Shown piece after piece: positions 34,211 to 58,286 of a stretch of DNA of 58,286 nt. The notes beneath the pieces were generated by a model. The model saw nothing but the letters and a program-made list of their open reading frames with translations. It had not been told where the DNA came from and searched no databases. Source of the stretch: Xylona heveae TC161 (Eukaryota; Ascomycota; Xylonomycetes; Xylonales; Xylonaceae); contig NW_017264206.1 in NCBI RefSeq assembly GCF_001619985.1, positions 603,315 to 661,600 of the forward strand. The letters are read 5' to 3'. How positions within the stretch are numbered: position 1 is the first letter of the stretch; the number at the start of each line of letters is the position of its first letter. The position numbers were made by a program, and so were the translations under genes.

Positions 34211-35424
34211 TCTAAAAATAATTTTATAATTTTATAATTTTATAATTTTAATTTTTTTAAATTAAAATTAACTAAATTAAAATAATTTTTAAATCTCTGC
34301 TATAATACTTTTTAAGCTAAATTTAATTCAATATAATTATTTTAAATAATTATAAACTATTAATTTTAATAATTAAAAAGTTTTAAATTTTAAATTTTAT
34401 TTTATTTTTCAAGTATTATATTTAATTAAATTTAGTTTTTTATTTTTATAAAAAGATATCTAAGTAATTTTTATTTTTATTTAATTTCTCTTGCTTTTGT
34501 ATATAATTCCTAAAAAATCATTAAACAAGACTTTGTATTAGAAATATAAAAATTTTAATATATAGATCTACTTATAGTTAAACTTTAGATTGATTTTAAC
34601 TTTAGAATAGATAAAAATTTTAATATCTAGTAGTTTAATACTTTTTAGTATAAATTATTTATACTATAATTTGTATTTTTATCAAGTTATTTAAAATACA
34701 ACTGTTTTATAGATATTAAAATATCATTGTCATTACCTATAATTACTTTAATAGTATTTAAATTATAATAAACATCTAGAAAATACTTGTATTTAATTAA
34801 AAAATTAATACTAGCTTTTGTAAATACTTGTAATAATAAAATATTAAGCATTCTAGAGTTTCAAAAGATAATTAATAGAATTAAATAGACTTTAACCATA
34901 CTGCTCAAGCTATTAAATTTTAGTATAGCTAGAAAATTAATTCTAGAATTTATATTTTCTAGTAGTTTCTAGCCTAAACTAGTTATAAAACAATTTAAAA
35001 TACTTAAATTATATCTATATTCTTGTATTATTAGTATATTTTAAGATACTATATTTATAATTTTTGAGTTTTTTAATATATTTAGAGCTATGACTACTAA
35101 TATTACTAGAGTATTAATTGTAGAAAAACAGGTAAAAAACACTAATATTTCTTTACTAACTTTAGCCTATAGTATAGTATTACTTGTTAATAGACTATAA
35201 ATAAAGTTAACAATATAGTTCTTGTTAAAGTTTTTATACTAAATTAAGTAGTAATTACTATAAATATATATTTACTAGTATAAAGTAAATATATAATTAA
35301 TGGCTAAAAGTTTTATTATATAAAGTAAAATGCTTGTTACTAGCAAGATATTTTTCCTATAATCTATATACTAGAGCTATAAATAAATCTTTTATTTATT
35401 TAGCTAAGTAAAAGTAATATACTT
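34211..35424. other. AT-rich stretch, unassigned
   Basis: Strongly mutated sequence. No frame or repeat relation that I could identify. Confidence 0.4.
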
Positions 35425-36117
35425 CTTATATATAAATAGTATAAATTTTTAATTTATTTAAAATTATTTTTTATTTAAGAAATATTTTTTAATTAAAATA
35501 CTTAATATTTTATATTATATAAATAAATTTAAATTATTAATCTAATATTAATAATTTTAAATAATTTAAATATAATGAAAAATAAAAAATTTAAAAAAAT
35601 AAAAAAATAATTATAATAATTTATTTCCTTTTTGGGACTAGCTTACTTTATAAACTAGTTTAATTTTAAAGCTTAATATTATACCATTGACTTAGAAGTA
35701 CCTTTTTTCTAAAAATAGTTTAAGATAAAAAATATATATAGTAAAAAAAAATAAAAAAAATAAAAAAAAAGATTTCTCAGCTGGAAATTAAACTCAGGTA
35801 CTTAAATACTTACAATATTTATATATTTCCTAATTAGAAAATAGCTTCTTAAATGGTATATTTTTAAAAATAAAATTTTTATTACATATCTTTTTATTTT
35901 TGTTTTTTTATTTTTAAAATAATTTTATACTATTTTAAATTAATTAAAAATTATTTTTAAAAAGTTTTAAATTTTTTAATTATTTTAGAAATATACAATA
36001 ACTAATTATATATATATAATTAAAATAATTAAAATTAATTTATATCTATTAATTATAAATTAATACTATTTTTAATATTTTAAAATAATTTAAAAATTTA
36101 TATTATCTGTATGTAAG
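35425..36117 (+). repeat. TIR-family repeat unit A (693 bp)
   Basis: Ends in the inverted sequences CTTATATATAAATAGTATAA (left) and, on the other strand at the right, CTTACATACAGATAATATAA. The interior matches unit B closely around two tRNA-like segments (about 35,630-35,700 and 35,775-35,800). No coding frame, so non-autonomous. No clear target duplication found. Confidence 0.75.
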
Positions 36118-36640
36118 TAGTAGTAAAACTTTGTACAAGAAATGCCTTAGAGGTAGAAGATACAGTTTGGATGATGGTTGCTTTTGAGATTCTAGATGTA
36201 ATTTAATAATTAGATAGTACTAAAAATTGACTACTAAGTTTTTGTACTACAAGATGTTAAAATAATTTATTAATAAAAATAATATACTTAAGTGCTTTTC
36301 TAATAATTATTTAAACTATAATAAACTAAAAATTTTTATTAAAAATTTAATAAAATTTTTTCAATAAAAAACTATTTCTACAAGTTGCAACCAATAATAT
36401 TACAAGATTAAAACTAGTTTTTTATTGTTACTAGATTTTAATAGTATATAATTTTTAATATTTAATTAAAAAAATAATTATTTATTAAATATTAAAATAT
36501 TTAAAAATAAATATAAAAATTAATTATTTAATCTATCAAAATAATTTAATTAAATAAAATATATTATTATATAAAATATTATATATATTTATATATATTT
36601 TTAATATAAAAACTAGTAACTGTTTAAAGAAAATTAATAG
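36118..36640. other. AT-rich stretch, unassigned
   Basis: May be the terminal part of the tnp2-like element to its right. Nothing definite. Confidence 0.4.
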
Positions 36641-36644
36641 TTCA

Positions 36645-39600
36645 TTAATATTTAAATAGAAAATTACTATTTAAAACTATATCAGTATTAATCTTCTCTA
36701 GTATTCTATTAAATAGTATAAAAACAAGATATAAATGAGAATAATTAGCTACAAGAAGGTCAATGATTATTAAGTCTGCTAATAGATAATAAACTAGTAG
36801 TTGTAACAAGTTATTAATTAATAGTTTGCCTAATGATCTATACACAGAGTAGATCAATGAACTAGTCAAAAAGTAGCATATTTTTGATTGATAATAGTAT
36901 ATAAATATCTATTGCAGTCAATAATTAAAGCCTGCAAGCAAGAAGTTATCTCCTGCATTTATTATATATTATTAATTTGTTATAAGATTAGTATAATTTA
37001 ACTGGCTGTACTACTTTAGTAGCCATTCATTATGTTTTATAATGTTTTAGATACCATAGTCTTAGGTAAAAGCTTTAGTAAGTTGCTGCATGAATAGACT
37101 CATGTAAGAAAGATATGATAACCTAGTTTGACTTGTAAAGTTCAATGCATTGTTATAATCTATAGCAAACTCTTGGTAGGTCAAATTGATAGATATATAA
37201 TATATATCATCTAGTACAAGAGAGAAAAAACTTGTAGACTCATCTCTAGATATATGCTCTACTCTAGAAAGAAAGCTATTCAAGAGTGATAGACACTATT
37301 CATTTAGTGATTCAAATGCTTCAATTAGTTCTAGATGCAAAAAATTCTATATGCTAGCCAGGTCAAGATAGAGAGACTGCTTGAGAATATTTTTAGCAAA
37401 TAAATATCCTATTAGATTTGATGGAAAAGCTTTATTAGTAAGTTGTTTAAAGTACATATGCTTGAATTTTCTAGCAAGTACATTGATGTTTATTAGAGTA
37501 CTATACTCATTAGCAAAGGCTGCTAGATGGACTCTAATATAAATATTTAATAGGTTAATTAAGTACAAGAATTTAGAACTTCCTTATATATATGCTTTAA
37601 CTGCTTGTTTTTCATAAGTATCATCTTTTATAGCCTTATCAATGACTGTTTTTAGACCCCTGTGCCAGCTTTTGTTGTCTTTAATATCATTAACATTGAG
37701 GTAATAATAGTCAAATCTTGTAGCATTATATATATATCTAACTAGTGCTTAAAACATACAACAAGCATATAGAATATATTAATAGAAGTGATCAAGATCA
37801 GTGTATTGTTGTAAGCTTGTCAAGCTTATGCTTTTGACAATAATAGTATAAGTAGTAATAATCTCTGCTGCAGAAGATAGGTATGTATAGAAGAATAAAT
37901 CCTGTTCTACTGCTTGCAAGTAATTGTATCTAAACCAACTAGGAAATGTGTAGGTATATAGAATTAAAAGAGTTAGTATTATAGCCCATGCTATCTTAAA
38001 GAGTAACCAGGAGTTTAGATAGAGCAATGGGCTTTAAATGCAGGGCTATCCTGCTAGAAAAGGAAATGACTAAAAAGTCTAGTTGTAAGCCAGCCTATTT
38101 TGCTTTATAAATAATGCTAAAAAGAGCAGCTCCTGTAACAGCCTTCCTACTCCTTGCTATTTAGAATGTAGTACATTATAAGGTCACTTTATTATAAGGT
38201 CCAAGGCTGGAGCAAGCTTTGCTACTGCTAGTAGGTCAAGATATAAACCAAGATTTCAAAAATGATACTGTTGGACTGTCTTTTCCATTGATACAGCTAA
38301 GTCTCTTTTCTTAATCATAGCATAGTAGTAGCATCTATTATCTACTATATTATAATTTATATTCTGGTAATTCTTGTTAGTACATAGGTAGCTTCTATAT
38401 CCTTGCTTAGTCATTTGATATAAAAAACCTTTATTGTCTGTCTGCTAAGACATGTTACTAATAAAGACTAATGTAAATGTAGATATAAATTTTTCTTTGC
38501 CAGTAATAGTCATAACCATTCTATAGTCAAGGCCTATAGCAGCTTTTATAAAGGCTACTACAAAGATTTCTATAGATATGCTATATAGACCTAGACAGAG
38601 GGTATATACATTAGCTATATTATAATATTCAAAATATAGAAGATTGACTAAAATCTAGTAGAATGCTTTGAAAGCATGATACATGTTGTGGTAAATGCCA
38701 AAATTGTTAATGAAGGTTAACAATAGTAGATTTAGCTATAATAATTATTGTAATCAATTAAACTAGCTGTGGTCAAAGGTTTCTAGTTCTAGCTCTACTT
38801 ATGTTAAGTACATTTTGAACAGTGATTGAATCTTGTCTCTTGTACTATTATATATATGGTACACAAAATCTCCATCCCTATCTGTTTCAGTGTTAGCAAC
38901 CTCAGAGTCATAGGCCTAGTCCAAAAATATAGACAGTATACTGTGTATAGATTGTAGTAGAACCTCAAGAATCCAATCCTCAAGTATTAGAAGTTTGTGC
39001 TTGTCAAATTTGTCTAGGTCAAAAATATGGCCCAGGTAACACTTTAACTTCTGGTAGTATAGCTAAATAATAGCTTGCAGCTGTATAATAATACTCCCAG
39101 GAGATTTTGTAGCATTTTGAAAGTTTTAGCCAAAGAAAATAACATGTCTCTTTGTATATCTATTTACTAGATCTATCTGTACAATGCTACCTGGAATTAT
39201 GATCTTGCTACCATTATCATAAGCATAGTTTCCAGAACATGCCCTTAAGGAAAAGCCCTAGTAGGGTGTATTCTATAGCTCTGTTAGAGAATCTAATAGC
39301 TTAGCCATGCTAAAATGCATCTTATGCACTATAGAGGTAGAAGAAAGTATAAAATGTATCAAATCTACTAGATCATACTAGTAGATCCATGAGTAACATT
39401 TGATTTGATATAGCTGTTTTGAATTGGATGGTAAAGACACCTCCTTCTTTTTAGTTACTAGTATCATTTTTCTTCTCAAGCAAAGCAATAGCAAATGACA
39501 ATAAAGTTATAGCTTTAATGTATTCAAGTATTTGGGCAGTTTGGTATGCTCAACTATTAGAGACCTTAGCATACTAAAGACTTCTCAAAGTCTTGTATAC

Positions 39601-41640
39601 TACTTTTTAAAGTAGTTATAGTATTTTGCCTAGAGACCCAAAGCCATCTGAAATTGTAGTAGTTTATTATCTTGACTTGATATATAATTTTCTTCATGTA
39701 CAATTTCATTTATATTCTTGTCAATATCATCTTGTATATTCTCATTACTATCCTTGCCTGCTTCTAAATTGTATACATAGTTGGTAAATAATATATTTTG
39801 CTTAGTTTTAGTCATGAGACCTGAAGAATTAATAAAGTCAACTATATATAGAGAATGCTCTAAATTGTCTTTGTACTACATAGCATTACTAGATTTTAAA
39901 TCCTTGTCTATCTTCTTACTACTAAGTGTTATATATTAATGTAGAGTAGAATAGTAAAACTAGGACTGTTGTGCTCTAGAAATAGATTAAACCACAAGTT
40001 AATCTCAATCTATGTTTTGAAGAGCCATGTTTGAGGTGTTTCAAGAAATGAAAATAAGGAAATGAACTATTTATTGTCAATGCCTTTTAACTTTTTTCCT
40101 GGAGGGTATATATACCATGTATTACATAAGCACTACTTTTACTTTTATTTAACTCAATTAGTGTCTTGAACAATGAGCTCAGAGTCATAATAACTAATGA
40201 ATTTACTATTGATTTAACTAAAAACCTGTTAAATACATTTACTAAACCTAAATTCTTTAAATTGTGTAGGTTGTAAGATTATCCATTCCTTTTAATCCAA
40301 TCTTGACTACAAAATAAAACAAAAAAAAATAGTACTAGATCAACTTTTCTGCAAATACACTTACCTCTCTAGTATAGAGTACCTTCTGTAACAGATTTTG
40401 CTTAAGATCAAAAGCAAAGTCTGTTACAAAATAAATATTCAAACAAGTCATTTTGAAATACTATCTTCATTTATATAAGCTACTAAATCCTCCTTAGATT
40501 TTCTTTCTTCAAGTTCCTCTTTTTTAGGTTCTTTTTCTTTAGGTTCTCCTTCATTAAATTTTCCTTCATTAGATTTTCCTTCATTAGATTCCCTTTCTAC
40601 TACTTCCTTACCCTCATTATAGTTTAACAAGTTTTCCAGGTCTAATCTCCTCTTGTGATTTAATTTGGTACCATGGTTGGCAGTAATGATATGCTGGATG
40701 AGCTTCTCTACAGTTAGTAGCCTGTGAACATTTGCTAGAGCATTAATACTACTATTCTACCTCTGTAGTTTACTATTTCTCCTAACAAACCACTTATTAA
40801 TATTGATTTTAGTATTCTTGTCTAGATTCTCAACTAGTTTGAGCTGGTTGCCATAAAAGTACTCTAGGTTTAACTTGGCCATGACTGACAGAATTGCTTT
40901 GATTAGATTCTTTATCATGACTTCATCATTGAAGGTATCTTTGATATAGAGTTTAGTAACTTCAACTAGGAATTCTTGTCCAATGTGTTGAACACAGTCA
41001 ATTGCTTGTACACCAAGATAATAAGAGAGTGGTAGGTTGAATAAAACTATAGTATAACAGAAGTAATATAGGTTTAGTCTGCAGCTGTTTATCATATAGG
41101 AGCATATTAGAATTTTGGCTTTCTTATAAATTCATTGATTAGTTTGTCCTGCTTAATATAATTAAGATAAGACCTAAAAATTCAGGCATCTATCTTGAGT
41201 AATTCTAACACCTCAAAGATCAAGAGTTGCTGGGCCAGATATGCAACCTAAATGATCATTTTGTACTGCTTCTGAATTATGATCTTGCTAACTAATTTTA
41301 GCAGGCACTTTATCTTTGGTGACTTTCTACAAATTTGTGCTAGGATTTTTATCTAGTCTGACTCCTCTAGAACTTCATACTTAGTATATTTCTGCTTTAC
41401 TACTTTCATCTACTGCTACAAGAAATTGAGTTTCTCCAACTACTTGAGTACTGATTTAGCTTTGATTAAGCTACAAATGTAAAAAAATCTGATCCAAGTT
41501 GTGGTTAGCATGAGCCTTTGTAGAATCTCTATGTTGATTTTAATTTTTTGCTCTTTACTACCCTCTACTTGTTCTATGCTAGCTCTTGCCTCATCCTTAT
41601 CTTTTTTGTATAATTTTCTAATAAACCATGTATAAAAATC
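36645..41640 (-). mobile_element. Large tnp2/CACTA-like DNA transposon remnant (tentative family)
   Basis: Many minus-strand frame pieces have coherent order. N-terminal part: LNLYYFCYTIVLFNLPLSYY (about 41,080) and an acidic/basic Glu-Lys-rich repeat region (40,450-40,630). Middle: FSMAKLLDSLTEL, then GSIVQIDLVN, then INNFGIYHNMYHAFKAFY (about 38,680), IANVYTLCLGLY, and TDNKGFLYQMTKQGYRSYLC. C-terminal part: AKLAPALDLIIK, then NINVLARKFKHMYFKQLTN (37,460). The IDDFGxxRNMYRAxxAFY...NVxxLTLGPHG...NxGFxxxxxxxGCR pattern is, as I recall, that of large fungal tnp2/Plavaka-type CACTA-like transposases. Stops interrupt it at former Gln and Trp codons. Terminal repeats were not found. The piece right of 41,100 may belong to a separate gene of the same element. 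Confidence 0.5.
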
Positions 41641-41869
41641 ATTATACTATTGATTGATTGTTTATTCTGCATGCAGCCCTAAAGCTATGGCAAGATCTAT
41701 AGTTTAAATATATAAAATGTGTATTGAACTTTTGGAAATCCCTCTAGAATCAGTGAAGCTGATACTAGATGTTATTTATCAATATAAAACAAAAGAAAAT
41801 TAGGAAAATAATAAAAATAGACAAAGTAAGAGTAATAAAAGTAATAAAAGAGAGTTAAAGTTTGGTTTT

Positions 41870-44800
41870 TTTTTTTGGTTTTGGTTTTTTGATTTTGGAA
41901 ATTTCAAGGAGTATTTTCATCTTAAAGCCTACCCCAGTCTCATAATGTTTCTTGTTGATGTTGTTTTTTTTGATGTAGTAATCATGTTCTTGATGCTATT
42001 TTAGTAGTATCTAGATATTCTAGTAAGTGGTTCCAGTTTTTTCCAGTATATAATATTTTCAAAGTAAGAACTTTTTCCTTTACTTTTTGTAGTAAAACTT
42101 TTTTAGCTTCTTTTGTTTGAGAGCAAGACAGTAATAGATAAGCTGGACTCTGAATAAAGTTACAGATAGAGCTACATTTTTTTAACTTATATATAGATAG
42201 CCTGTATAAGTAGAATTTGAAGTAACCATGTCCTATCTTGAGTTAAATGGTAGTTGTAACTAGTTTTCTTCTAAGGTCTTGGTATTCCTCAAATAGCTTC
42301 TAGTGTAGAAGGGTTTAAAACTGTTTATAATGTTTTTTTTAGAAGTAGATTGCCATTGGTAAATCTATTGCTCAAGAATAAGTTTTTTCAACTTTTTTTC
42401 AAGTAGCTGTATGAAGTATATGCATTCTTGTATGATTTATTGGTATATATTATTTTATGTTTGGCTACTTTATCTGCTTTTTTATTTCCTAGTATTCTTT
42501 GATGTCCTGGAACCTATTGAAGATAGATTTAAATATTATTGTCTTTGAAGACTTGAATAGCAGAAAAGATTTGTAGTAGTAGTTGTTGTCCAGATCCAGC
42601 TATAGGGTATTGTATTGTATCTAAGATACTTTAATTGTCTATAAATATCCAGATAGCTTTAAGGTTTATAATTGATCTATATGCTATCCATTCTATTGCT
42701 TTAGTTAAAGCAAAAAGTTCTACATCATAGATTTTTATATATGAGCCCAGATGCCAAGAAAAAGTATATGTGTCTTGACAGTATATAATATAACATCCTG
42801 CTTCTGCTATTGTTTATAGTGATTTATCTATATATACTATACAATTTTCTTCTGGAATTTGCCTTTAAAGAGTGTTTAGTATTGTTTGATGTTTTTCTAT
42901 CATATCAAACTTGGAGTGCTTGTTTTTGATGATAGATATAGCTGGAAATTGTTTCCATGGAGGTCATTCAGTTATTGTATAAGATTCTAGCTCTAGTGTA
43001 ATAGATAAAATAGTAGCTAACTTAGCTAGTATTTTTATATATTGAGTAGAATATGCTTTTGATTTTGACTGAGTAGGTTGTTGATTCCAGTCTAGGTACT
43101 TGGTAGTATCTATATCTTGTCTTATTTGTGATATTGAAGGAAATTCTTTGGGAGTTTTTTGTCTAAGTAGATATAACAAGCATAGTATAGTTATTCTCAA
43201 TGTATATTTATAGCTGTGAAGTTCTAGCCTGAGGTTGACAGGTAATAAACATGCTTTTATCTCTATAGCTTGTATAGGACTTGTTTTAAAGCATCTAAGA
43301 ATCTTTCTTAAGGCTTGATTTTGAAGTTTTTGAAAGAAGTTCTTGTAGTTTATTTGTTGTTTCTACCAGATTGGAAATCTAAAGTCACTAATAAATGTAG
43401 TACAAGCTTTGTATAAGGTAATTCCAGCTAGAACAGACATTTTTTTTTTGATCCAAGTAGTCTACTTAGGCTGTGAAAGGCTCTTGTAGCTGCTGTTACT
43501 TTTCTAGTAATATATTCTTTAAAAGATAGTTTGAAATCAAACCAAATTCCTAACTATTTAACACAGGTACTAGGAACTATTATAGTTCCATTTGGTAGTG
43601 TACATGTAGCTTGGCTTAGTGTTTTTATTCTTTGAAAGTAAATAAACTCTGTTTTTGTATCATCAAATACAATAGCATTTTCTTCTCTCTAGATAAAGGC
43701 TAGTTTAGTAATTTCCTTAAGAATTAAATAGTTAGCTATAGGTATAGCTCCTTGAACTACTATAGCTATATTATCAATATAGCTAGGTAGTTTAACTATA
43801 GGGAATCTATCTTGGATATAGTTAAATAGAAATCTTAAGTATAATAAAAATAAGATAGGTAATAGAGGTGAGCCTTGTGGAATTCCAGTATTGATAGCTG
43901 TCATAGATTGTTATTATCCATCAAAAGCTAAACTAATTTGTTTTTGTATCATAAAGCATTTTGTCTAGTTAAATACTACTTTTGGTAGTTAAAATTGTTG
44001 TAGAACTTGTAGTAGTTGTATAGTTGAAACATGGTCAAATGCTCCTTTTATACCTAAGAATAAGTAGAATAAAACTTGTTTTTAATTCCAAGCTTCTTGA
44101 ATATCATGGGTAAGCATTATAGCTATATCTATAGCTAATCTTTGTTTTCTACCTTTCATTTACTTTTGATATAATAAATCTTGACTATCTCCTAGATAGG
44201 ATAATCTGATAGCTATAATCTTTTCTAAAATCTTGCCTAAGCAGTTAAGGAGTGTAATTATTCTATATACTTTTGGTTAAGTATAGTCAGGCTTTGATGG
44301 TTTCTTTAGTACTGCTCCTATGCCTTGTCTCCAGCTAATAGAATAATATTCTTGGTTTAATAGTAGTTGATATACTAGAGTAAACTATCTTAGAATGTAT
44401 TGGAATGCTCTTTGAATGATTGCAAAAGATAATTGATCAGGTTCTGGAGCCTTTTTTAGAGCAAAAGTTTAAATAGCATGCTTGATTTCTTGTTGAGTAA
44501 TCTTTGGCCAAGAGTATGTTTAAGCCTTATATTGAACTTCTATAGTTCCTTGACTTGTAGATAGTGTAGAAAATAAAGTAGTTAAGAAAGCTGAACATTT
44601 TCCTTCAAAAGTAGTTTTTAAAGTAGCTGGTTCTTGAATAAGAGAAAGTTTTTCTACTTTTCTTGAGTTAATATAGTGATATGCTTTGAAAACATCAGTT
44701 TTTTTAGCATTTGTTAGAAAGTTTGTTTAGAATATTTCTTTAGCTTGTCTAATACTTCTAAAAAAACTGTTTCTTTTGGTAGTATATTTTTTCCATAAAA

Positions 44801-45827
44801 CTTGACTTTTGTTTTACTTTTATTATCTCTTTGCTTGAGCTACTTTAGTTTTTTGAAATGATAGTTGATCATTCCACCATGGTTTAGATCTTGAAGATAG
44901 TTTAAATTGAGGAATAGATCTTTAGCATGCTATTTTAATAGTATGTTGTAATGTATATGCTATTTCTTCTAGCTTAGTAGTTGAAATTGTATCTTTTAGT
45001 AAATCTTTTTGTAGTTGATCTAAATAATACTTTTCTTGCTCCTGGATTATATTTTAAAAGATTTTCTAGTTAGTCTTATTAACATTGAAAGAAGTATGTA
45101 TAAGATAAATAACTTCTTTTAATTTTGCTCTTTTTAATATAAATTTAATTGCTTCATGATCTAATACTGTTGCCTAGTCTTCAAGTATTTGTCAATCTTG
45201 TATATAAAGATATAGATTGAGTGTAGAAAATGCTAGATCCAATACTGAAAAAGTATTTCTTTGATTTCCAAGATAAGTTATTAAATCAAAAGTATTTATC
45301 AAGAGAAATTAATATTGTGTAAGCTATATAACTAGTACATCTGCTCTAATAGAAGTAGTTTTTATAGAGTTCTATCATATATAGTATGCATTCAAATCTC
45401 TACAGATAAGTATTCTAGATCATGGTTGTATATTGTATAATAGTCTTTTTATTATCTATAGAGAAGGTGTTGTGTTTTGTTAAGCTTCATTATAGATATT
45501 AATAATAAATATTAGTAAAATAGTAGTGCTTTGTACTTGTAAAATAAAACAATCTTTATCTTGAATCATTGTTTCAATAGTACATTGTAGGTCTGGTTTA
45601 AGCTTTATAATAAAAGCTAATACTCTAGATTTTTTTGATAATGATAAAGGAAATATTGTTGTAAATGAAGGATATAATATAGTAGTATTGTTTGGTTCAA
45701 TCCAGGATTTTTATAGTAAAAGAATGTTTGTTGAAGATGTTGCTAGATCTAGACATATATACATAACATTAATAGATCTAATACAATTGTATTAGACTAT
45801 TTGAATATCTGTTGAATTTCTATTCAT
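41870..45827 (-). pseudogene. LINE ORF2 (endonuclease, RT, RNase H), left copy
   Basis: Mirror of the right-hand ORF2. The longest open piece is the RT fingers/palm segment at 43,904-43,689 (TGIPQGSPLLPILFLLYLRF, then SYIDNIAIVV; the YxDD box reads YIDN). The 3' part, absent from the right copy because of the window edge, continues to about 41,870. Confidence 0.8.
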
Positions 45828-47308
45828 TAATATTTTATGGCAAAATAGTCTGTAGTTGATGTAGTTAGTAATAAGACTTGGTATATAGAGCATTCTTTTA
45901 CATTGGCCTTGTGACTTTCTAAACAGTTACTACATTTAATAATGCTATAAAAACAGGTCTTGCCTATAGTTGGTGGAGAACATATTGTACATATATGTTG
46001 TTTTGTATTATGTAGTTCTGCACAGATTTAACATTTTGCTTCTTTGGTACATCTAGTATGTTAATGTCCAAATTGTTGACATTTAAAGCATTGGTTTGTT
46101 GGTTTATTGTCTTCATATTTAACTATTCTAGCTAATAGTCTAGCTATAAAAAGTCTGTTTCTTAAGGCTTGCTTAGCTTCTTGTTCTGTTTTGAAAGCTA
46201 GTACCAGAGAAGAATGTTCCTTGTATTGTCTTGTTTTTATAGATATAATCCAAGTAGGTAAACATGCAAGTTTTAGACCTTTGTTATATATTTCAAGTTC
46301 TTCTTGAATTGCTTATAATTCTTGAGGTTCTTGAAATACTTTGTAGAAATTCCATGAGCAACTATTTTGTGCTACTTCTCATCTTTTGCAATTTGTGTTA
46401 CTTCTAGTTCAGAGGCCCAGATAGCTTTATATTATAATAGTTAATAAGTTGTATTGTTTTGATGGGTTATTAAGACAATATTTGTCTTTGACTGAGATTG
46501 AATAATACTTGCTACTGGTAAATCATTGATTTTTACTTTTTTAAGTTTTTTGTTAATCTAGTTCCTGATTTTCATAGCATTGAAAGGATTTGGCATCTGT
46601 TTAAGAATAACAATTACTCTCCTATCTCTAAAAGTAATAATTGGTTTAATTACTTCTTTAGTTTTAGTCTTAGCTTTTGAGACTGTAGTCCATGAATTGT
46701 CCTTTGTGCTAGGTCTTTTAGCTATAAAAGCATATGTTGTAGATGGCTTTGATTTTTGATTGACAGGCTGGAATTGAAAAGTAGTTGGTAATGTAGTTTG
46801 TTTAATTGCTTGTTGTTCAGTAGTTGTTTAAAGTATTTGATCAAGCTTTGTAGTAATTTCAGTTTTAAATTATTGAAATTCTACTTTTGAAACTTGCTCT
46901 TGACTTTTTATTAATAAAATATCTTGTTCCATGACTTGAAAACTTTTTTTTTCTTGAATAGCTTGTAGTAGCTGGTTAATGTTTTGAATATCTTGAGTTG
47001 TTTGTTGTTAAAAGTTTTTGGAAATAGTTAGTGTAGTTAAGCTTTGAAGTAGTTGTTGGTTTTGTTTAACTACCATTTGGATTTTTTCCTTTATAGTAGT
47101 GTTGATAGCTTGATATTTTTTTCTTTTTTAAGTGTAGCTGTCTTGGTTTTAGAGTTGAAGATTCTTGTAGTACTTGGACTAAAAAATCTATATCTAGCTC
47201 TTTCTCAATTGATTTGATAGTTAAAGCCATCTTGACTAAAGTATTTTCAATCAAAGCAATAGAAGATAGTGGTGAAGATAGAAAGTTTATTGTAGGTGTC
47301 CAACTCAT
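45827..47308 (-). pseudogene. LINE ORF1 (gag-like, zinc knuckles), left copy
   Basis: Mirror of 52,983-54,464. Begins MSWTPTINFLSS, runs through a Gln-rich coiled-coil-like region, a DNSWTTVSKA segment and an RNA-binding-like segment (FRDRRVIVILKQ), and ends with CCHC-type knuckles. One frame change after about 80 codons and repeated stops break it. Confidence 0.8.
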
Positions 47309-48055
47309 ACCCTTTCAAAGAACAAGTCCTGCCTTCAGACTTACTCTTTGCTACCTCCCTGAATTACTTTCTCAAGAAGTAAGACTTTACTTACAGGTAT
47401 TCTCCAAGCCTTACTCCTTGCTACCAAGGTTATACTTACTCTTCTTTACTAAATTATGGTATAAACCAAGCCTAGTCTATACTTAATCTAGTGGAAATCC
47501 AGTCTAGGTTTTGGTCTACAATCTATCTTTTATAACTAGGTATAGCTCTCTCAAGTCTTGATTGTCAAGGTTGCCAAGAGTTTACTATTCTAGATGTAAA
47601 AGAGTCCAGCCAAGATTAATATTTTTCTTTCTCTAAAAGCAAGAAAACTTGGCTCTTACTTCTAGAGTTTTACCTAGCTAGTAGGGATTAAAAAAGTTTC
47701 TTTAAACAGTAGTTTAAGGAGTACTAAATTAATTTTGTAGCTACTAGTTGTACTTTATAAAGGCTTCTGCTTTTTACAAAGTACTAGGTGTATTAGATCT
47801 TTAAGGAAAGAGGCCTCTAATACAGCTAAAAGCTAGGATAAAATACTAGAATATAGTGTTTTAGAGCCTAACTTTGTATTTTTGGTTCTTGGTATATATA
47901 TTTTTTTTTTAAAAATAAAGCAAATAATTAATAGCAGAAATAAATGAAAAACTTACTCTTTCCAGAATCTACAAAGGCAGTTTGTTCCAGGTCCTAGAAG
48001 GTACAAAATTAAATACAAAAATAGTTCAAAAACAAAAGAAAATCCAGGTCCAGGT

Positions 48056-48511
48056 CCAGGTCCAGAAAGGTAATACAAAACCAAATACAAATTTTTATCA
48101 AAACTTAATAATGTAATTTATACAAATGAAATTGACAAAGAATTAATGGTGTTATGAGGGGAAATTACCTAACTTCTAGTATAAAGCACTCTGAAGAGAA
48201 TGTCTTATAACTAGGCAACCAGGAGGTCTACCTACACAAATAATAATGGAAAATAGAGTGTAAAGCAAATAAAATCAGAAACAACTTGCAGAAATAGAAT
48301 TGAAAAAGGATTGATAGTATTATAAAGGGGAAGGTATTTTGTAATACAAAAAGTATAAAAACTTCAACACTTAATAACTCAACAACAAACAATGATAATA
48401 ATAAAATTCAAAATGAAATACAATATTCTTGCATATAAAAAACAGTAAACAAGTTTTAAAAAAGATTCAACAAGGATTGGTAGAGTTGCAGAGAGGGTAA
48501 AAATTTTTCAC
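48056..48511 (-). repeat. Tandem monomers in the LINE 5' region, left copy
   Basis: Mirror image of 51,780-52,235. Three diverged direct copies, about 160-170 bp apart, of a block with CCCTCTNTG/CCCCTTTATAA followed by an AATC(C/T)TT core. Confidence 0.55.
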
Positions 48512-48840
48512 TTAGTAGTATAGTACTTAGCATCTAGAATTTAGGATGCAAAAGAACTATAACCACTAGTGATTTTTTTTGTGAATTTGGATAAATTAAA
48601 TAAAATAAGTAGATAAATATATAAAACAAGTTTGGAGTAAATAAAATAAGATTTAGTTGAGTAGTAAGGAAAGAAATTTTTTTTTTCTTGTTTTCAAAAT
48701 AAAGAAAATTTCAAACTCTTATAATTCCATTAGTTTTAACTTAAATAAAGTCAATCAAGATGGAATTAAGAGCCTAAAAAGTTCTCTTTAATTTAAATCA
48801 ATTTGTACTTGATTTAAAGTTCTATTGGTAGAGATAGAGG

Positions 48841-49189
48841 AGGATTTGCTCTTGAGCTTTCTATATCTATTTGAGGTCCAGGTCTAGTTGATTTTTGCAT
48901 CTTTGTATTAATTATAAGGCATTAAACAATATAACAATTAAAAATTACTACCTGTTACTACTAGTTAAAGAAATTTTTAATTGCCTTAGTAGCATGAAAA
49001 TATTTATTAAACTAAACTTACAAAATACATACTACTATATATATATCAAGAAAAATAACAAGTAGAAAACTATATTTTATACTCATTATAACTTATTTAA
49101 ATATATAGTAATACTATTTAAACTTACAAATATACTAGTAATATTCTAAATATATATAAATGAAGCTTTGGCAGGCCTCTTAAATAATA
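48841..49189. other. Left part of the palindrome spacer
   Basis: AT-rich, no recognised coding content. It may belong to the gypsy element that follows. Confidence 0.4.
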
Positions 49190-49853
49190 TTTATATTATA
49201 TATATAGATAACATTCTTTTATATAGTAAAACAAAAGAAAAGCATGAGTAGTATATACAAGTAGTATTTAAAAGACTATATAAATATAAACTATTTATAA
49301 AACTATTAAAATATAAATTCTTTAAGACTTTTATATCATTTCTTAGATTTACTATTATTACTACTAGAGTAGAGATAGACAAAAGCAGGCTAAAAGTCAT
49401 AAAAAATTAGCTAATTCTTAAAAGTTTTTATAATATCTAAGTCTTCTTGAGATTTATAAACTTTTATTAATAATTCATTACTCTATAGTTAAAAATTATA
49501 CTACTACTAATAAAATACTTGAAAGGCATAAAAAATAGAAAAAAACTAGGAAAATTAGAATGGTCTATTATAGTAAACTAGGCATTTAATAAGCTAAAAG
49601 CATGCTTTACAACAATATTAATTTTATAATATTTCAATTCTAAACTACTAATTTATCTAGAAACAAATACTTTAGGAAAAAAAATAAGAGTAATTTTGTC
49701 CTAGTAAAGTAATAAAATAATTAAGAGTATAGGAAGTACATGGTACCTTATAGTATTTTGGTTAAGAAAACTAAATCAAGTAGAACAAAACTATAATATA
49801 TATAATCTAAAACTTTTAGCAATCATAAATGCCTTCAAAAAATGATAACACTA
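49190..49853 (+). mobile_element. Ty3/gypsy LTR retrotransposon fragment (fossil)
   Basis: Plus-strand similarity to the end of the reverse transcriptase and the start of the RNase H region of Ty3/gypsy elements. It is broken, with about ten or more breaks, and lacks gag, protease, integrase and identifiable LTRs. It is cut at 49,853 by a TIR-type unit. Heavy C-to-T style mutation suggests an insertion that is old relative to the mutation process. Confidence 0.75.
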
Positions 49854-50093
49854 CTTACATACAAATAGTATAAATTTTTAAATTATTTAAAATTATTTTT
49901 TATTTAAAAAATATTTTTTAATTAAAACATTTAATATTTTATATTATATAAATAAATTTCAATTATTAATCTAATACTAATAATTTTAAATAATTTTAAA
50001 TTTTTTTAAAATTTTTGTAAATTAATTTAAATAATTTAAATATAATAAAAAATAAAAAATTTAAAAAAATAAAAAAATAATTAATTTTCTATT

Positions 50094-50163
50094 TGGGACT
50101 AGCTTACTTTATAAACTAGTCTAATTTTAGAGCTCAATATTATACCATTGAGCTAGAAGTACC
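50094..50163 (-). repeat. tRNA-like segment 2 in unit B (box A)
   Basis: On the minus strand it starts GGTACTTCTAGCTCAATGGT. TAGCTCAATGGT (50,144-50,155) fits the RNA polymerase III box A consensus. AGCTCAA pairs with TTGAGCT in a D-arm-like hairpin. Matching segments lie in unit A (box A at 35,683-35,694, mutated) and unit C (34,134-34,145). Confidence 0.55.
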
Positions 50164-50235
50164 TTTTTTCTAAAAATAGTTTAAGATAAAAAATATATAT
50201 AGTAGAAAAAAATAAAAAAAATAAAAAAAAAAATT

Positions 50236-50310
50236 TCTCAGCTGGGAATTAAACTCAGGTATTTAAATACTTATAATATTTATATATTTCCTAATTAGAA
50301 AATAGTTTTT
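50236..50310 (-). repeat. tRNA-like segment 1 in unit B (T-arm, box B)
   Basis: On the minus strand CTGAG-TTTAATT-CCCAG (about 50,242-50,258) forms a T-arm with a 5-bp stem (one mismatch) and a 7-nt loop. The loop is TTCRATT after a C-to-T change. About 48 nt upstream is a D-arm-like CTAATTAGGA. Unit C keeps the less mutated form GAGTTCAATCCC. Confidence 0.55.
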
Positions 50311-50844
50311 CAAATAGTATATTTTTTTAAAATAATTTTTTTTATTTTTTTATATGTCTTTTTATTTTTATATTTTTATTTTTAAAATAGTTTTATACTA
50401 TTTTAAATTAATTAAAAACTATTTTCAAAAATTTTTAAATTTTAAATTATTTTAGAAATATTTTATAACATTTAATAAAATTTAATATTATTATAAAATT
50501 TTTAAAAATTTTAAATTAAATATAAATAATTAAAATATATTTAAAATTATTAAATATAAAACTTTATATAAAAAATTATATTTAATTATTTTAAATAAAA
50601 TCAATACAATTATTAAATTAATATAAATTAGTTTAAATATATAAATATTTAAAATATTTTAAATTTAATTTTAATATAGAAATATATTTTATATAATTTA
50701 AAAATATTTTTAAAATTTTTAAAAAATTGAAAAAATTGTTTTTATATATTAAAAATAAATAAAATTAATTTATATCTATTAATTATAAATTAATATTAAA
50801 ATTAAATTTAAAATAATTTAAAAATTTATACTATCTATATGTAA

Positions 50845-51450
50845 GTAATAAATGATTTATTATAGAGTAATATTACTAAATAATAAACTTCAAGAACTAT
50901 ATAGAACAAATCTAGCTATATAAAAAAACCATCTTCTTTATATAGACAATTTATTCTATGCTAATTACTCTTGATTACTTTGATCATTTTGATTACCTTA
51001 TAATTATTTGTAATCATAGTAATTTTTTTTTCTACTACTACTTTCTACTTTTCTTATCTTATCATTATATGATTTTTCCTCCATAATGTCTAGTAGCATG
51101 CTATACCTCTATACTCCTTATAGTAGGTCTTGTACTATCTATTACTAACTCTTGTAATCATTGTTACATTGTCATTGGTTAATATTATATAAATGTTTTT
51201 AATTAATTCTTTAACTACAAGTTAAATAATATAAAAAAGGTAAGATAAATAACTAAAAAATACTTGAAATAACTATTCTAGGAACAATATCTCTAAGTTC
51301 TAAACAAGTATAGTATTATTACTTGCATTATCTAAGATGACTACAAATAGTCTATTTTTAAGCTTGTGCTTCTGTATTACCCTTGTAACCAGGACTACTA
51401 TATTTTGTCTAATATGTCTTCTCTTGACTTTAATAAATTAGAGACCCCTC
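50845..51450. other. Right part of the palindrome spacer
   Basis: AT-rich, no recognised frame. It may be a terminal part of the gypsy element. Confidence 0.4.
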
Positions 51451-51779
51451 CCTCTATCTCTACCAATAGAACTTTAAATCAAGTACAAATTGATTTAAAT
51501 TAAAGAGAACTTTTTAGGCTCTTAATTCCATCTTGATTGACTTTATTTAAGTTAAAACTAATGGAATTATAAGAGTTTGAAATTTTCTTTATTTTGAAAA
51601 CAAGAAAAAAAAAATTTCTTTCCTTACTACTCAACTAAATCTTATTTTATTTACTCCAAACTTGTTTTATATATTTATCTACTTATTTTATTTAATTTAT
51701 CCAAATTCACAAAAAAAATCACTAGTGGTTATAGTTCTTTTGCATCCTAAATTCTAGATGCTAAGTACTATACTACTAA

Positions 51780-52235
51780 GTGAAAAATTTTTACCCTCTC
51801 TGCAACTCTACCAATCCTTGTTGAATCTTTTTTAAAACTTGTTTACTGTTTTTTATATGCAAGAATATTGTATTTCATTTTGAATTTTATTATTATCATT
51901 GTTTGTTGTTGAGTTATTAAGTGTTGAAGTTTTTATACTTTTTGTATTACAAAATACCTTCCCCTTTATAATACTATCAATCCTTTTTCAATTCTATTTC
52001 TGCAAGTTGTTTCTGATTTTATTTGCTTTACACTCTATTTTCCATTATTATTTGTGTAGGTAGACCTCCTGGTTGCCTAGTTATAAGACATTCTCTTCAG
52101 AGTGCTTTATACTAGAAGTTAGGTAATTTCCCCTCATAACACCATTAATTCTTTGTCAATTTCATTTGTATAAATTACATTATTAAGTTTTGATAAAAAT
52201 TTGTATTTGGTTTTGTATTACCTTTCTGGACCTGG
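51780..52235 (+). repeat. Tandem monomers in the LINE 5' region, right copy
   Basis: Three diverged direct repeats, with cores near 51,812 (accaatccttgttgaatc), 51,984 (atcaatcctttttcaattc) and 52,143 (attaattctttgtcaattt). Each is preceded by a C-rich CCCTCT/CCCCTT/CCCCTC block. The spacing of 160-170 bp resembles 5' UTR monomers of some LINEs. A separate short ggacct triplication lies at 52,228-52,250. Confidence 0.55.
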
Positions 52236-52982
52236 ACCTGGACCTGGATTTTCTTTTGTTTTTGAACTATTTTTGTATTTAATTTTGTACCTTCTAGGAC
52301 CTGGAACAAACTGCCTTTGTAGATTCTGGAAAGAGTAAGTTTTTCATTTATTTCTGCTATTAATTATTTGCTTTATTTTTAAAAAAAAAATATATATACC
52401 AAGAACCAAAAATACAAAGTTAGGCTCTAAAACACTATATTCTAGTATTTTATCCTAGCTTTTAGCTGTATTAGAGGCCTCTTTCCTTAAAGATCTAATA
52501 CACCTAGTACTTTGTAAAAAGCAGAAGCCTTTATAAAGTACAACTAGTAGCTACAAAATTAATTTAGTACTCCTTAAACTACTGTTTAAAGAAACTTTTT
52601 TAATCCCTACTAGCTAGGTAAAACTCTAGAAGTAAGAGCCAAGTTTTCTTGCTTTTAGAGAAAGAAAAATATTAATCTTGGCTGGACTCTTTTACATCTA
52701 GAATAGTAAACTCTTGGCAACCTTGACAATCAAGACTTGAGAGAGCTATACCTAGTTATAAAAGATAGATTGTAGACCAAAACCTAGACTGGATTTCCAC
52801 TAGATTAAGTATAGACTAGGCTTGGTTTATACCATAATTTAGTAAAGAAGAGTAAGTATAACCTTGGTAGCAAGGAGTAAGGCTTGGAGAATACCTGTAA
52901 GTAAAGTCTTACTTCTTGAGAAAGTAATTCAGGGAGGTAGCAAAGAGTAAGTCTGAAGGCAGGACTTGTTCTTTGAAAGGGT

Positions 52983-54464
52983 ATGAGTTGGACACCTACA
53001 ATAAACTTTCTATCTTCACCACTATCTTCTATTGCTTTGATTGAAAATACTTTAGTCAAGATGGCTTTAACTATCAAATCAATTGAGAAAGAGCTAGATA
53101 TAGATTTTTTAGTCCAAGTACTACAAGAATCTTCAACTCTAAAACCAAGACAGCTACACTTAAAAAAGAAAAAAATATCAAGCTATCAACACTACTATAA
53201 AGGAAAAAATCCAAATGGTAGTTAAACAAAACCAACAACTACTTCAAAGCTTAACTACACTAACTATTTCCAAAAACTTTTAACAACAAACAACTCAAGA
53301 TATTCAAAACATTAACCAGCTACTACAAGCTATTCAAGAAAAAAAAAGTTTTCAAGTCATGGAACAAGATATTTTATTAATAAAAAGTCAAGAGCAAGTT
53401 TCAAAAGTAGAATTTCAATAATTTAAAACTGAAATTACTACAAAGCTTGATCAAATACTTTAAACAACTACTGAACAACAAGCAATTAAACAAACTACAT
53501 TACCAACTACTTTTCAATTCCAGCCTGTCAATCAAAAATCAAAGCCATCTACAACATATGCTTTTATAGCTAAAAGACCTAGCACAAAGGACAATTCATG
53601 GACTACAGTCTCAAAAGCTAAGACTAAAACTAAAGAAGTAATTAAACCAATTATTACTTTTAGAGATAGGAGAGTAATTGTTATTCTTAAACAGATGCCA
53701 AATCCTTTCAATGCTATGAAAATCAGGAACTAGATTAACAAAAAACTTAAAAAAGCAAAAATCAATGATTTACCAGTAGCAAGTATTATTCAATCTCAGT
53801 CAAAGACAAATATTGTCTTAATAACCCATCAAAACAATACAACTTATTAACTATTATAATATAAAGCTATCTGGGCCTCTGAACTAGAAGTAACACAAAT
53901 TGCAAAAGATGAGAAGTAGCACAAAATAGTTGCTCATGGAATTTCTACAAAGTATTTCAAGAACCTCAAGAATTATAAGCAATTCAAGAAGAACTTGAAA
54001 TATATAACAAAGGTCTAAAACTTGCATGTTTACCTACTTGGATTATATCTATAAAAACAAGACAATACAAGGAACATTCTTCTCTGGTACTAGCTTTCAA
54101 AACAGAACAAGAAGCTAAGCAAGCCTTAAGAAACAGACTTTTTATAGCTAGACTATTAGCTAGAATAGTTAAATATGAAGACAATAAACCAACAAACCAA
54201 TGCTTTAAATGTCAACAATTTGGACATTAACATACTAGATGTACCAAAGAAGCAAAATGTTAAATCTGTGCAGAACTACATAATACAAAACAACATATAT
54301 GTACAATATGTTCTCCACCAACTATAGGCAAGACCTGTTTTTATAGCATTATTAAATGTAGTAACTATTTAGAAAGTCACAAGGCCAATGTAAAAGAATG
54401 CTCTATATACCAAGTCTTATTACTAACTACATCAACTACAGACTATTTTGCCATAAAATATTAA
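52983..54464 (+). pseudogene. LINE ORF1 (gag-like, zinc knuckles), right copy
   Basis: Starts MSWTPTINFLSSPLSS. After about 80 codons the recognisable frame changes. It continues with a Gln/Lys-rich coiled-coil-like stretch, DNSWTTVSKA, FRDRRVIVILKQMPNPF, KIVAHGIST, VLAFKTEQEAKQALRNRLF and knuckles CFKCQQFGH..TRC, C.ICAELH and CSNYLESHKANVKEC. In the last one the second Cys codon TGT has become TAT (Tyr), a C-to-T change on the other strand. TAA and TAG stops lie within it. Its final TAA overlaps the ORF2 ATG. Confidence 0.8.
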
Positions 54465-57400
54465 TGAATAGAAATTCAACAGATATTCAAATAGTCTAAT
54501 ACAATTGTATTAGATCTATTAATGTTATGTATATATGTCTAGATCTAGCAACATCTTCAACAAACATTCTTTTACTATAAAAATCCTGGATTGAACCAAA
54601 CAATACTACTATATTATATCCTTCATTTACAACAATATTTCCTTTATCATTATCAAAAAAATCTAGAGTATTAGCTTTTATTATAAAGCTTAAACCAGAC
54701 CTACAATGTACTATTGAAACAATGATTCAAGATAAAGATTGTTTTATTTTACAAGTACAAAGCACTACTATTTTACTAATATTTATTATTAATATCTATA
54801 ATGAAGCTTAACAAAACACAACACCTTCTCTATAGATAATAAAAAGACTATTATACAATATACAACCATGATCTAGAATACTTATCTGTAGAGATTTGAA
54901 TGCATACTATATATGATAGAACTCTATAAAAACTACTTCTATTAGAGCAGATGTACTAGTTATATAGCTTACACAATATTAATTTCTCTTGATAAATACT
55001 TTTGATTTAATAACTTATCTTGGAAATCAAAGAAATACTTTTTCAGTATTGGATCTAGCATTTTCTACACTCAATCTATATCTTTATATACAAGATTGAC
55101 AAATACTTGAAGACTAGGCAACAGTATTAGATCATGAAGCAATTAAATTTATATTAAAAAGAGCAAAATTAAAAGAAGTTATTTATCTTATACATACTTC
55201 TTTCAATGTTAATAAGACTAACTAGAAAATCTTTTAAAATATAATCCAGGAGCAAGAAAAGTATTATTTAGATCAACTACAAAAAGATTTACTAAAAGAT
55301 ACAATTTCAACTACTAAGCTAGAAGAAATAGCATATACATTACAACATACTATTAAAATAGCATGCTAAAGATCTATTCCTCAATTTAAACTATCTTCAA
55401 GATCTAAACCATGGTGGAATGATCAACTATCATTTCAAAAAACTAAAGTAGCTCAAGCAAAGAGATAATAAAAGTAAAACAAAAGTCAAGTTTTATGGAA
55501 AAAATATACTACCAAAAGAAACAGTTTTTTTAGAAGTATTAGACAAGCTAAAGAAATATTCTAAACAAACTTTCTAACAAATGCTAAAAAAACTGATGTT
55601 TTCAAAGCATATCACTATATTAACTCAAGAAAAGTAGAAAAACTTTCTCTTATTCAAGAACCAGCTACTTTAAAAACTACTTTTGAAGGAAAATGTTCAG
55701 CTTTCTTAACTACTTTATTTTCTACACTATCTACAAGTCAAGGAACTATAGAAGTTCAATATAAGGCTTAAACATACTCTTGGCCAAAGATTACTCAACA
55801 AGAAATCAAGCATGCTATTTAAACTTTTGCTCTAAAAAAGGCTCCAGAACCTGATCAATTATCTTTTGCAATCATTCAAAGAGCATTCCAATACATTCTA
55901 AGATAGTTTACTCTAGTATATCAACTACTATTAAACCAAGAATATTATTCTATTAGCTGGAGACAAGGCATAGGAGCAGTACTAAAGAAACCATCAAAGC
56001 CTGACTATACTTAACCAAAAGTATATAGAATAATTACACTCCTTAACTGCTTAGGCAAGATTTTAGAAAAGATTATAGCTATCAGATTATCCTATCTAGG
56101 AGATAGTCAAGATTTATTATATCAAAAGTAAATGAAAGGTAGAAAACAAAGATTAGCTATAGATATAGCTATAATGCTTACCCATGATATTCAAGAAGCT
56201 TGGAATTAAAAACAAGTTTTATTCTACTTATTCTTAGGTATAAAAGGAGCATTTGACCATGTTTCAACTATACAACTACTACAAGTTCTACAACAATTTT
56301 AACTACCAAAAGTAGTATTTAACTAGACAAAATGCTTTATGATACAAAAACAAATTAGTTTAGCTTTTGATGGATAATAACAATCTATGACAGCTATCAA
56401 TACTGGAATTCCACAAGGCTCACCTCTATTACCTATCTTATTTTTATTATACTTAAGATTTCTATTTAACTATATCCAAGATAGATTCCCTATAGTTAAA
56501 CTACCTAGCTATATTGATAATATAGCTATAGTAGTTCAAGGAGCTATACCTATAGCTAACTATTTAATTCTTAAGGAAATTACTAAACTAGCCTTTATCT
56601 AGAGAGAAGAAAATGCTATTGTATTTGATGATACAAAAACAGAGTTTATTTACTTTCAAAGAATAAAAACACTAAGCCAAGCTACATGTACACTACCAAA
56701 TGGAACTATAATAGTTCCTAGTACCTGTGTTAAATAGTTAGGAATTTGGTTTGATTTCAAACTATCTTTTAAAGAATATATTACTAGAAAAGTAACAGCA
56801 GCTACAAGAGCCTTTCACAGCCTAAGTAGACTACTTGGATCAAAAAAAAAATGTCTGTTCTAGCTGGAATTACCTTATACAAAGCTTGTACTACATTTAT
56901 TAGTGACTTTAGATTTCCAATCTGGTAGAAACAACAAACAAACTACAAGAACCTCTTTCAAAAACTTCAAAATCAAGCCTTAAGAAAGATTCTTAGATGC
57001 TTTAAAACAAGTCCTATACAAGCTATAGAGATAAAAGCATGTTTATTACCTGTCAACCTCAGGCTAGAACTTCACAGCTATAAATATACATTGAGAATAA
57101 CTATACTATGCTTGTTATATCTACTTAGACAAAAAACTCCCAAAGAATTTCCTTCAATATCACAAATAAGACAAGATATAGATACTACCAAGTACCTAGA
57201 CTGGAATCAACAACCTACTCAGTCAAAATCAAAAGCATATTCTACTCAATATATAAAAATACTAGCTAAGTTAGCTACTATTTTATCTATTACACTAGAG
57301 CTAGAATCTTATACAATAACTGAATGACCTCCATGGAAACAATTTCCAGCTATATCTATCATCAAAAACAAGCACTCCAAGTTTGATATGATAGAAAAAC

Positions 57401-58286
57401 ATCAAACAATACTAAACACTCTTTAAAGGCAAATTCCAGAAGAAAATTGTATAGTATATATAGATAAATCACTATAAACAATAGCAGAAGCAGGATGTTA
57501 TATTATATACTGTCAAGACACATATACTTTTTCTTGGCATCTGGGCTCATATATAAAAATCTATGATGTAGAACTTTTTGCTTTAACTAAAGCAATAGAA
57601 TGGATAGCATATAGATCAATTATAAACCTTAAAGCTATCTGGATATTTATAGACAATTAAAGTATCTTAGATACAATACAATACCCTATAGCTGGATCTG
57701 GACAACAACTACTACTACAAATCTTTTCTGCTATTCAAGTCTTCAAAGACAATAATATTTAAATCTATCTTCAATAGGTTCCAGGACATCAAAGAATACT
57801 AGGAAATAAAAAAGCAGATAAAGTAGCCAAACATAAAATAATATATACCAATAAATCATACAAGAATGCATATACTTCATACAGCTACTTGAAAAAAAGT
57901 TGAAAAAACTTATTCTTGAGCAATAGATTTACCAATGGCAATCTACTTCTAAAAAAAACATTATAAACAGTTTTAAACCCTTCTACACTAGAAGCTATTT
58001 GAGGAATACCAAGACCTTAGAAGAAAACTAGTTACAACTACCATTTAACTCAAGATAGGACATGGTTACTTCAAATTCTACTTATACAGGCTATCTATAT
58101 ATAAGTTAAAAAAATGTAGCTCTATCTGTAACTTTACTCAGAGTCCAGCTTATCTATTACTGTCCTGCTCTCAAACAAAAGAAGCTAAAAAAGTTTTACT
58201 ACAAAAAGTAAAGGAAAAAGTTCTTACTTTGAAAATATTATATACTGGAAAAAACTGGAACCACTTACTAGAATATCTAGATACTA
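54464..58286 (+). pseudogene. LINE ORF2 (endonuclease, RT, RNase H), right copy, partial
   Basis: Starts MNRNSTDIQIV. The AP-type endonuclease region shows CRDLNAYYI (normally GDFNAHH) and VLDHEAIKF (normally SDHE). The reverse transcriptase region has KAPEPDQLSF, AFDHVS, TGIPQGSPLLPILFLLYLRF and SYIDNIAI. RNase H has YIDKS, DVELFALTKAIEWIA, IFIDN and GNKKADKVAKH. Stops fall mainly at Gln (CAA to TAA) and Trp (TGG to TAG) positions. The frame runs off the window. Confidence 0.82.

What the first reader, a model, noticed from the sequence alone, without database searches (positions are those of the whole stretch)
42005..58286. Perfect inverted repeat of at least 6.8 kb made of two LINE copies with the same mutation scars
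Seen: the arms 42,005-48,840 and 51,451-58,286 pair at a constant coordinate sum (100,291), without any length difference and without a mismatch in every stretch I compared, including all shared stops. Known: RIP hits each repeat copy at different sites, so two separately mutated copies should differ. Inference: one arm was copied from the other after mutation (inverted duplication or gene conversion), mutation had already ceased, or the assembly is a fold-back artefact. Each has different consequences, and a real 16-kb palindrome would be unusual for fungal DNA.
Basis: partly seen in the sequence, partly recalled or inferred. Interest (0 to 1): 0.85.

Follow-up and report, generated by a model that had tools for sequence, protein, structure and literature searches.

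The report
Two near-identical dead LINEs, inverted
In what looks like fungal DNA, two dead copies of one jumping gene face each other and share almost every mutation, so one was probably copied from the other after it was disabled, although an assembly mistake cannot be ruled out from the sequence alone.

Summary
The inverted repeat is really in the sequence, but it is not perfect. Arms 42,005-48,839 and 51,452-58,286 pair over 6,835 columns with six differences and no indel. All six are C:G/T:A transitions in CpA or CpT context. All 50 stops in four hand-chosen frames are shared. A 2.6-kb spacer separates the arms. The outer edge is only the window end: a third relative shows the left LINE running on to about 41,658.

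The left arm is a LINE on the minus strand (RT), so both copies have their 5' sides inward. Two independently mutated copies are strongly disfavoured. The third relative differs at 129 of 589 columns, and a rough model expects 67-507 CpA differences where three are seen.

Best reading: sequence was copied between the arms after mutation, most likely by ectopic gene conversion; local inverted duplication is the main rival. Assembly error is possible but weakened by the six RIP-type differences. Reading 350-1,000 bases beyond the window end would separate the first two. The whole tail 29,720-58,286 has no CpG (444 expected). A modest new case of known processes.

The parts
41658..48843 (-). Left LINE copy, about 7.19 kb; 5' side at 48,843, 3' end about 41,658 (the outer 347 bases have no partner because the window ends)
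   Evidence: self-BLAST and third-copy alignment; RT and weak endonuclease match on the minus strand
51447..58286 (+). Right LINE copy, same 5' edge, cut off by the window end about 350 bases before the expected 3' end
   Evidence: 99.9% inverted match to the left copy; its domains were not searched apart from those of the left copy
43381..45710 (-). Left copy, frame with endonuclease and reverse transcriptase similarity; 29 in-frame stops, all shared with the right copy
   Evidence: Pfam RVT_1 E 1.5e-19, Exo_endo_phos_2 E 6.7e-05 below cut-off; stops
45824..46312 (-). Left copy, likely ORF1 part with a zinc-knuckle-like stretch seen by eye
   Evidence: open stretches; Pfam zf-CCHC only E 0.12 for 46064-46312, no match for the whole stretch
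48844..49860 (+). Spacer, left part: broken Ty3/Gypsy-type RT and RNase H fragment next to the left LINE 5' edge
   Evidence: Pfam RT_RNaseH_2 E 6.2e-13, RVT_1 E 1.1e-09 from residue 21 at profile position 16
49847..50848 (.). Spacer, middle: about 90% A+T element with inverted ends (by eye), related to stretches near 30.2-30.5, 33.6-34.3 and 35.4-36.1 kb
   Evidence: self-BLAST, sequence, composition
50849..51446 (.). Spacer, right part: unassigned A+T-rich sequence next to the right LINE 5' edge
   Evidence: no significant Pfam match in the three minus frames (best E 0.048); plus frames were not scanned
32987..33604 (-). Third, short relative of the LINE 3' end, more heavily C-to-T mutated
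   Evidence: 589 aligned columns, 129 substitutions, 109 transitions
29720..58286 (.). CpG-free A+T-rich tract that holds all the parts above
   Evidence: 0 CpG in 28,567 bases at 24.9% G+C against 444.5 expected from base counts

Best explanation
Two copies of one Tad-like LINE lie head to head, 2.6 kb apart, in a CpG-free, RIP-like mutated block of what is probably an ascomycete genome. After at least one copy had been wrecked by C-to-T mutation, the sequence of one was copied onto the other by ectopic gene conversion between the inverted copies. A few later C-to-T changes then fell mainly on the left copy. Shown: near-identity, shared stops, kind of mutation, direction at two of six sites. 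Inferred: that the route was gene conversion, and that the inner edge is the LINE's true 5' end. Post-mutation copying by any route I put at about 0.75; the value below is for gene conversion in particular.
For: 6 differences in 6,835 columns, no indel. 50 of 50 in-frame stops shared. 14 of the 50 are TAG, which C-to-T can make only from CAG or TGG by CpA changes, so exhaustion of CpG alone cannot make two copies alike (reasoning; assumes the frames were once open). Separate hits at CpA should leave 67-507 differences for hit rates 0.05-0.38; three are seen (from 667 remaining CpA). The third relative shows what separate mutation gives: 129 of 589 columns differ. The left copy's length of about 7.19 kb is what I recall for a complete Tad-type element, so the shared inner edge could be the LINE end, where conversion between two insertions must stop. 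The two inner flanks are unlike each other. In Zymoseptoria tritici meiotic conversion is highest in H3K9me3 heterochromatin (PMC10294615, passages), but as far as the passages show that is conversion of allelic markers, not between repeats.
Against: No target-site duplication is detectable for the left copy (null 0.61). Its 5' neighbour is Gypsy, while its 3' neighbour shows no Pfam match up to E 0.1 in three minus frames (36,600-41,657) and three plus frames (37,000-41,657), so a clean insertion into Gypsy is not shown and a rearrangement joint at 48,843 is possible. No other copy of the LINE 5' end was found in 29,701-42,000, so the inner edge is not proven to be the LINE start. One conversion would have to cover at least 6.8 kb, or several would have to add up.
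Confidence: 0.4

Rival explanations
1. Local inverted duplication after mutation: a segment holding the mutated LINE was copied in reverse nearby, for example by template switching, and one of the two inner joints (48,843 or 51,447) is the new one.
For: Explains the shared scars equally well. The left copy shows no target-site duplication and has unlike neighbours on its two sides. A short CCTC is shared at the two joints.
Against: The arm's inner edge lies within about 60 bases of recognisable Gypsy RT, and the element length looks complete (recalled), which would be a coincidence for a random breakpoint.
Confidence: 0.27
2. Assembly error: the contig runs into a repeat, and the right arm is built from reads of the left copy or of other near-identical copies.
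For: The window ends inside the right arm without reaching an outer flank. No reads are available and no whole genome is held.
Against: The six differences are 6 of 6 C:G/T:A transitions in CpA/CpT context, about 0.0014 if all substitution errors were equally likely (my arithmetic), and there are no indels; six is a small number. A fold-back read would not carry a 2.6-kb unlike spacer.
Confidence: 0.18
3. Retrotransposition of an already mutated LINE: RNA of a dead copy was mobilised in trans and inserted nearby.
For: Would give long copies with shared stops and different flanks.
Against: Needs a working helper element and transcription of a mutated, probably silenced copy (general knowledge). 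No target-site duplication seen at the left copy.
Confidence: 0.09
4. Separate but convergent mutation: two fresh identical copies were driven to the same end state by exhaustive mutation.
For: CpG is fully exhausted. In the third-copy comparison there are 0 TG/CA conflicts, so loss of CpG may be close to deterministic.
Against: 667 CpA and 1,002 CpT remain in the arm, while the third copy is changed at 39 of 55 CpA and 37 of 81 CpT sites, so these contexts are mutable, not exhausted, and should differ between separate histories. The 14 TAG stops need CpA changes.
Confidence: 0.03

Closest known systems
A+T-rich, repeat-filled isochore-like tracts of filamentous ascomycetes (Blastomyces, Leptosphaeria maculans)
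   Same: Sharp border to a gene-rich side and broken Gypsy and LINE relics. The Blastomyces paper reports often sharply demarcated GC-poor tracts of about 30% GC, rich in gypsy with some Tad1-like elements (PMC4595289, passages).
   Different: No CpG at all over 28.6 kb, and a near-identical pair of relics beside more diverged ones. I have no data on CpG in those tracts.
Tad1-type LINEs of filamentous fungi
   Same: Endonuclease (weak) then RT on one strand, zinc-knuckle-like ORF1 by eye, length about 7.2 kb; the family traits are recalled.
   Different: No tree was built, so clade membership is untested; no RNase H match in Pfam; both copies are dead.
Inverted repeats homogenised by gene conversion (for example primate Y palindromes, recalled)
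   Same: Long inverted arms with over 99.9% identity and an unlike spacer.
   Different: The arms are transposon relics, not genes, and only one pair in one unnamed sequence is seen.

Membership tests
LINE (non-LTR retrotransposon) | Reverse transcriptase with endonuclease upstream, no LTRs | tested here: met
   RVT_1 E 1.5e-19; Exo_endo_phos_2 E 6.7e-05 but 23.2 bits against a cut-off of 27.4; no direct terminal repeats of it among the 120 best self-BLAST rows listed
LINE (non-LTR retrotransposon) | Target-site duplication | tested here: inconclusive
   None better than the null for the left copy (0.61); heavy mutation may hide it, and the right copy's 3' side is outside the window
Tad1 clade | RT phylogeny within the clade | not tested
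   No tree built; the name rests on recall and length
RIP-mutated repeat | C:G to T:A bias between copies with dinucleotide preference | tested here: met
   109 of 129 substitutions are transitions: 88 arm C:G to third-copy T:A (CpA 39/55, CpT 37/81, CpC 11/24, one at a gap) and 21 the other way (CpT 17, CpA 3, CpC 1); six of six arm differences
RIP-mutated repeat | Acts in the sexual phase on duplicated DNA and depends on RID | not testable with these tools
   No genome held
True palindrome or fold-back read | Arms meet at the centre with little or no spacer | tested here: not met
   840 of 1,305 mirrored positions between 48,841 and the centre 50,145 do not pair
Gene-converted inverted repeat | Homology ends at the ends of the shared element on both sides, with independent flanks | tested here: inconclusive
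   Inner side fits if 48,843 is the LINE start; outer side of the right copy lies beyond the window

The most novel reading that the evidence does not exclude
In this species mutation exhausts CpG first, and DNA without CpG is then a poor target, so mutated repeats can again be copied and kept near-identical. Long inverted pairs of dead LINEs would then persist in heterochromatin and, if read through, could supply double-stranded RNA against live relatives. Against it: the third copy shows that CpA and CpT are still hit.
Probability: 0.07. Interest if true: 0.55.

Novelty: new member of a known kind. Interest (0 to 1): 0.27.

Why it matters
If the pair is real, it records copying between repeats after RIP-like mutation. 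The six later changes, all C-to-T in kind, are of the order that one weak RIP passage makes: in Z. tritici a 14-kb duplication gained a median of 11 per ascospore, range 0 to 57, in 24 ascospores (PMC10294615, passages), though that is another species. Such pairs also warn that near-identity of mutated repeats need not mean recent transposition, and they are places where assemblies break.

Tried and rejected
Tried without result: whole-genome search (no genome held); relatives of one 73-residue RT piece in viral contigs (115 pattern matches, none confirmed); tRNA scan (0); target-site duplication, in the simple form and in a form that assumes inversion of the spacer (null 0.61 and 0.45). An earlier 9-base match, TTTGCTCTT at 48,845 and 41,547, was dropped because a second 9-base match turned up in the same small search and because the outer site lies inside an open stretch about 100 bases beyond the LINE's 3' end. 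A search for the LINE's 5' region (46,900-48,843) in 29,701-42,000 gave only short hits of 17-146 columns at 60-94% identity, best E 8.4e-04, which I take as chance matches in A+T-rich DNA.

Rejected: fold-back read and true palindrome (spacer); separate convergent mutation (TAG stops, remaining CpA/CpT). A resemblance of the minus strand near 51,446-51,250 to hAT transposase motifs is recalled only; Pfam gave nothing significant there. I first thought the unlike inner flanks excluded an inverted duplication; they do not, because the LINE 5' end is not shown independently.

Papers: passages only, from PMC10294615, PMC4352252 and PMC4595289, which are used; and from PMC6141143, PMC3248453 and PMC12543289, which gave nothing used here. 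Search listings only. A 2009 Coccidioides comparison that I recall as reporting CpG-poor repeats is not held; that comparison is recall, and I do not name an order or species for this window.

Full report
Observation. A self-comparison gives one dominant inverted match, 42,005-48,843 with 58,286-51,447, at 99.898% over 6,840 columns with 6 mismatches and 1 gap. In register (sum 100,291) I compared 6,835 columns, 42,005-48,839: six differences, no indel, longest identical run 2,571 bases. The outer limit is just the window end: a third relative at 32,987-33,604 aligns to the left copy from about 41,658 on, so the left element is about 7.19 kb and the right one is cut off about 350 bases short of its expected end.

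What the arms are. Open stretches and Pfam place a LINE on the minus strand of the left arm: RVT_1 at E 1.5e-19 and Exo_endo_phos_2 at E 6.7e-05, the latter below Pfam's own cut-off. A zinc-knuckle-like stretch upstream is seen by eye; Pfam's score for it is not significant (E 0.12). Pfam found nothing in the downstream frame 42,009-43,362, so no RNase H is shown. The right copy was identified by its identity to the left. The 5' sides of both copies face the spacer. 'Tad-like' rests on recall; no tree was built.

The mutations. In four frames chosen by eye (207, 163, 777 and 404 codons) there are 50 stops: 29 TAA, 14 TAG and 7 TGA. All 50 are present in both copies. TAG can arise by C-to-T only from CAG or TGG, in CpA contexts on one strand or the other, so these changes, if the frames were once open, are not CpG changes. 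The arm still holds 667 CpA and 1,002 CpT, both strands counted. If each copy had been hit separately at CpA with rates of 0.05 to 0.38 (0.38 being 14 TAG against 7 CAG and 16 TGG left), 67 to 507 CpA differences would be expected; three are seen. The model is rough, but the gap is very large.

The six differences. All are C:G/T:A; three are CpA and three CpT. In the LINE's own orientation the left copy has T against C at five, and the right copy has A against G at one. At 42,126 and 42,154 the third relative agrees with the right copy, so the left copy changed; the other four sites are not covered by it. Six of six transitions would have a chance of about 0.0014 if substitution errors of all kinds were equally likely (my arithmetic). 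This favours two real DNA copies over reuse of the same reads, but six is a small number.

The third relative. Against the left copy it shows 129 substitutions in 589 columns, 109 of them transitions: 88 arm C:G to third-copy T:A (39 of 55 CpA, 37 of 81 CpT, 11 of 24 CpC, one beside a gap) and 21 the other way, 17 of these CpT. That is what separately mutated relatives look like here. One result cuts the other way for CpG alone: there is no TG/CA conflict (0), so loss of CpG may be nearly deterministic.

The inner edges. After the last shared bases the left copy meets a broken Gypsy RT/RNase H frame (RT_RNaseH_2 E 6.2e-13; RVT_1 E 1.1e-09 from residue 21, profile position 16). The right copy meets A+T-rich sequence without a significant Pfam match in three minus frames. 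A short CCTC is common to both joints, with a one-base gap. If the edge is the LINE's true 5' end, copying by conversion or by insertion is favoured. But no other copy covers that end, no target-site duplication is found, and the left copy's other neighbour shows no Pfam match in three minus and three plus frames, so a rearrangement joint is a fair alternative.

Setting. The last CpG in the window is at 29,718. The following 28,567 bases have none, at 24.9% G+C, against 444.5 expected from base counts. The other side is gene-rich DNA of 42-52% G+C per kilobase with ATP sulfurylase, APS kinase and other genes. A filamentous ascomycete is my inference from this make-up; the species is unknown to me. 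Parallels in print: isochore-like GC-poor tracts in Blastomyces and L. maculans (PMC4595289, passages); CpG as well as CpA/CpT signatures of C-to-T change in some fungal genomes (PMC4352252, passages); meiotic gene conversion, of polymorphic markers, more frequent in H3K9me3 heterochromatin of Z. tritici (PMC10294615, passages).

Verdict. Post-mutation copying of one arm from the other is well supported by the sequence if the assembly is right (about 0.75 overall). Gene conversion is my preferred route (0.4), inverted duplication next (0.27), assembly error 0.18, trans-mobilisation of a dead copy 0.09. The kind of thing is known; the case is neat and easily tested by reading a little beyond the window and mapping reads.

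Noticed in passing
29,720-58,286: Complete absence of CpG over 28.6 kb with an abrupt border to gene-rich DNA; TpG and CpA are not in excess (0.91 and 0.88 of expectation), so lost CpG seems to have gone on to TpA.
   Followed up: partly
30,198-30,517; 33,577-34,293; 35,411-36,122; 49,847-50,848: Related, very A+T-rich (about 86-90%) stretches in both orientations; the one at 49,847-50,848 has inverted ends by eye (TACTTACATA...) and interrupts the Gypsy RNase H frame near 49,850.
   Followed up: no
36,648-41,646, minus strand: Long open stretches (for example 124 residues at 40,760-41,131) in CpG-free DNA with no significant Pfam family; best E 0.0075 for that piece, below the cut-off.
   Followed up: partly
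46,535; 43,352; 43,338; 42,154; 42,126: The five T-against-C differences in the left copy all lie on the LINE sense strand, as if made in one strand-coherent event.
   Followed up: no
1-107: The window begins inside a 9-base tandem repeat (GTGTCATCG, 11.9 copies) within an open frame, so both window ends lie in repeats.
   Followed up: no
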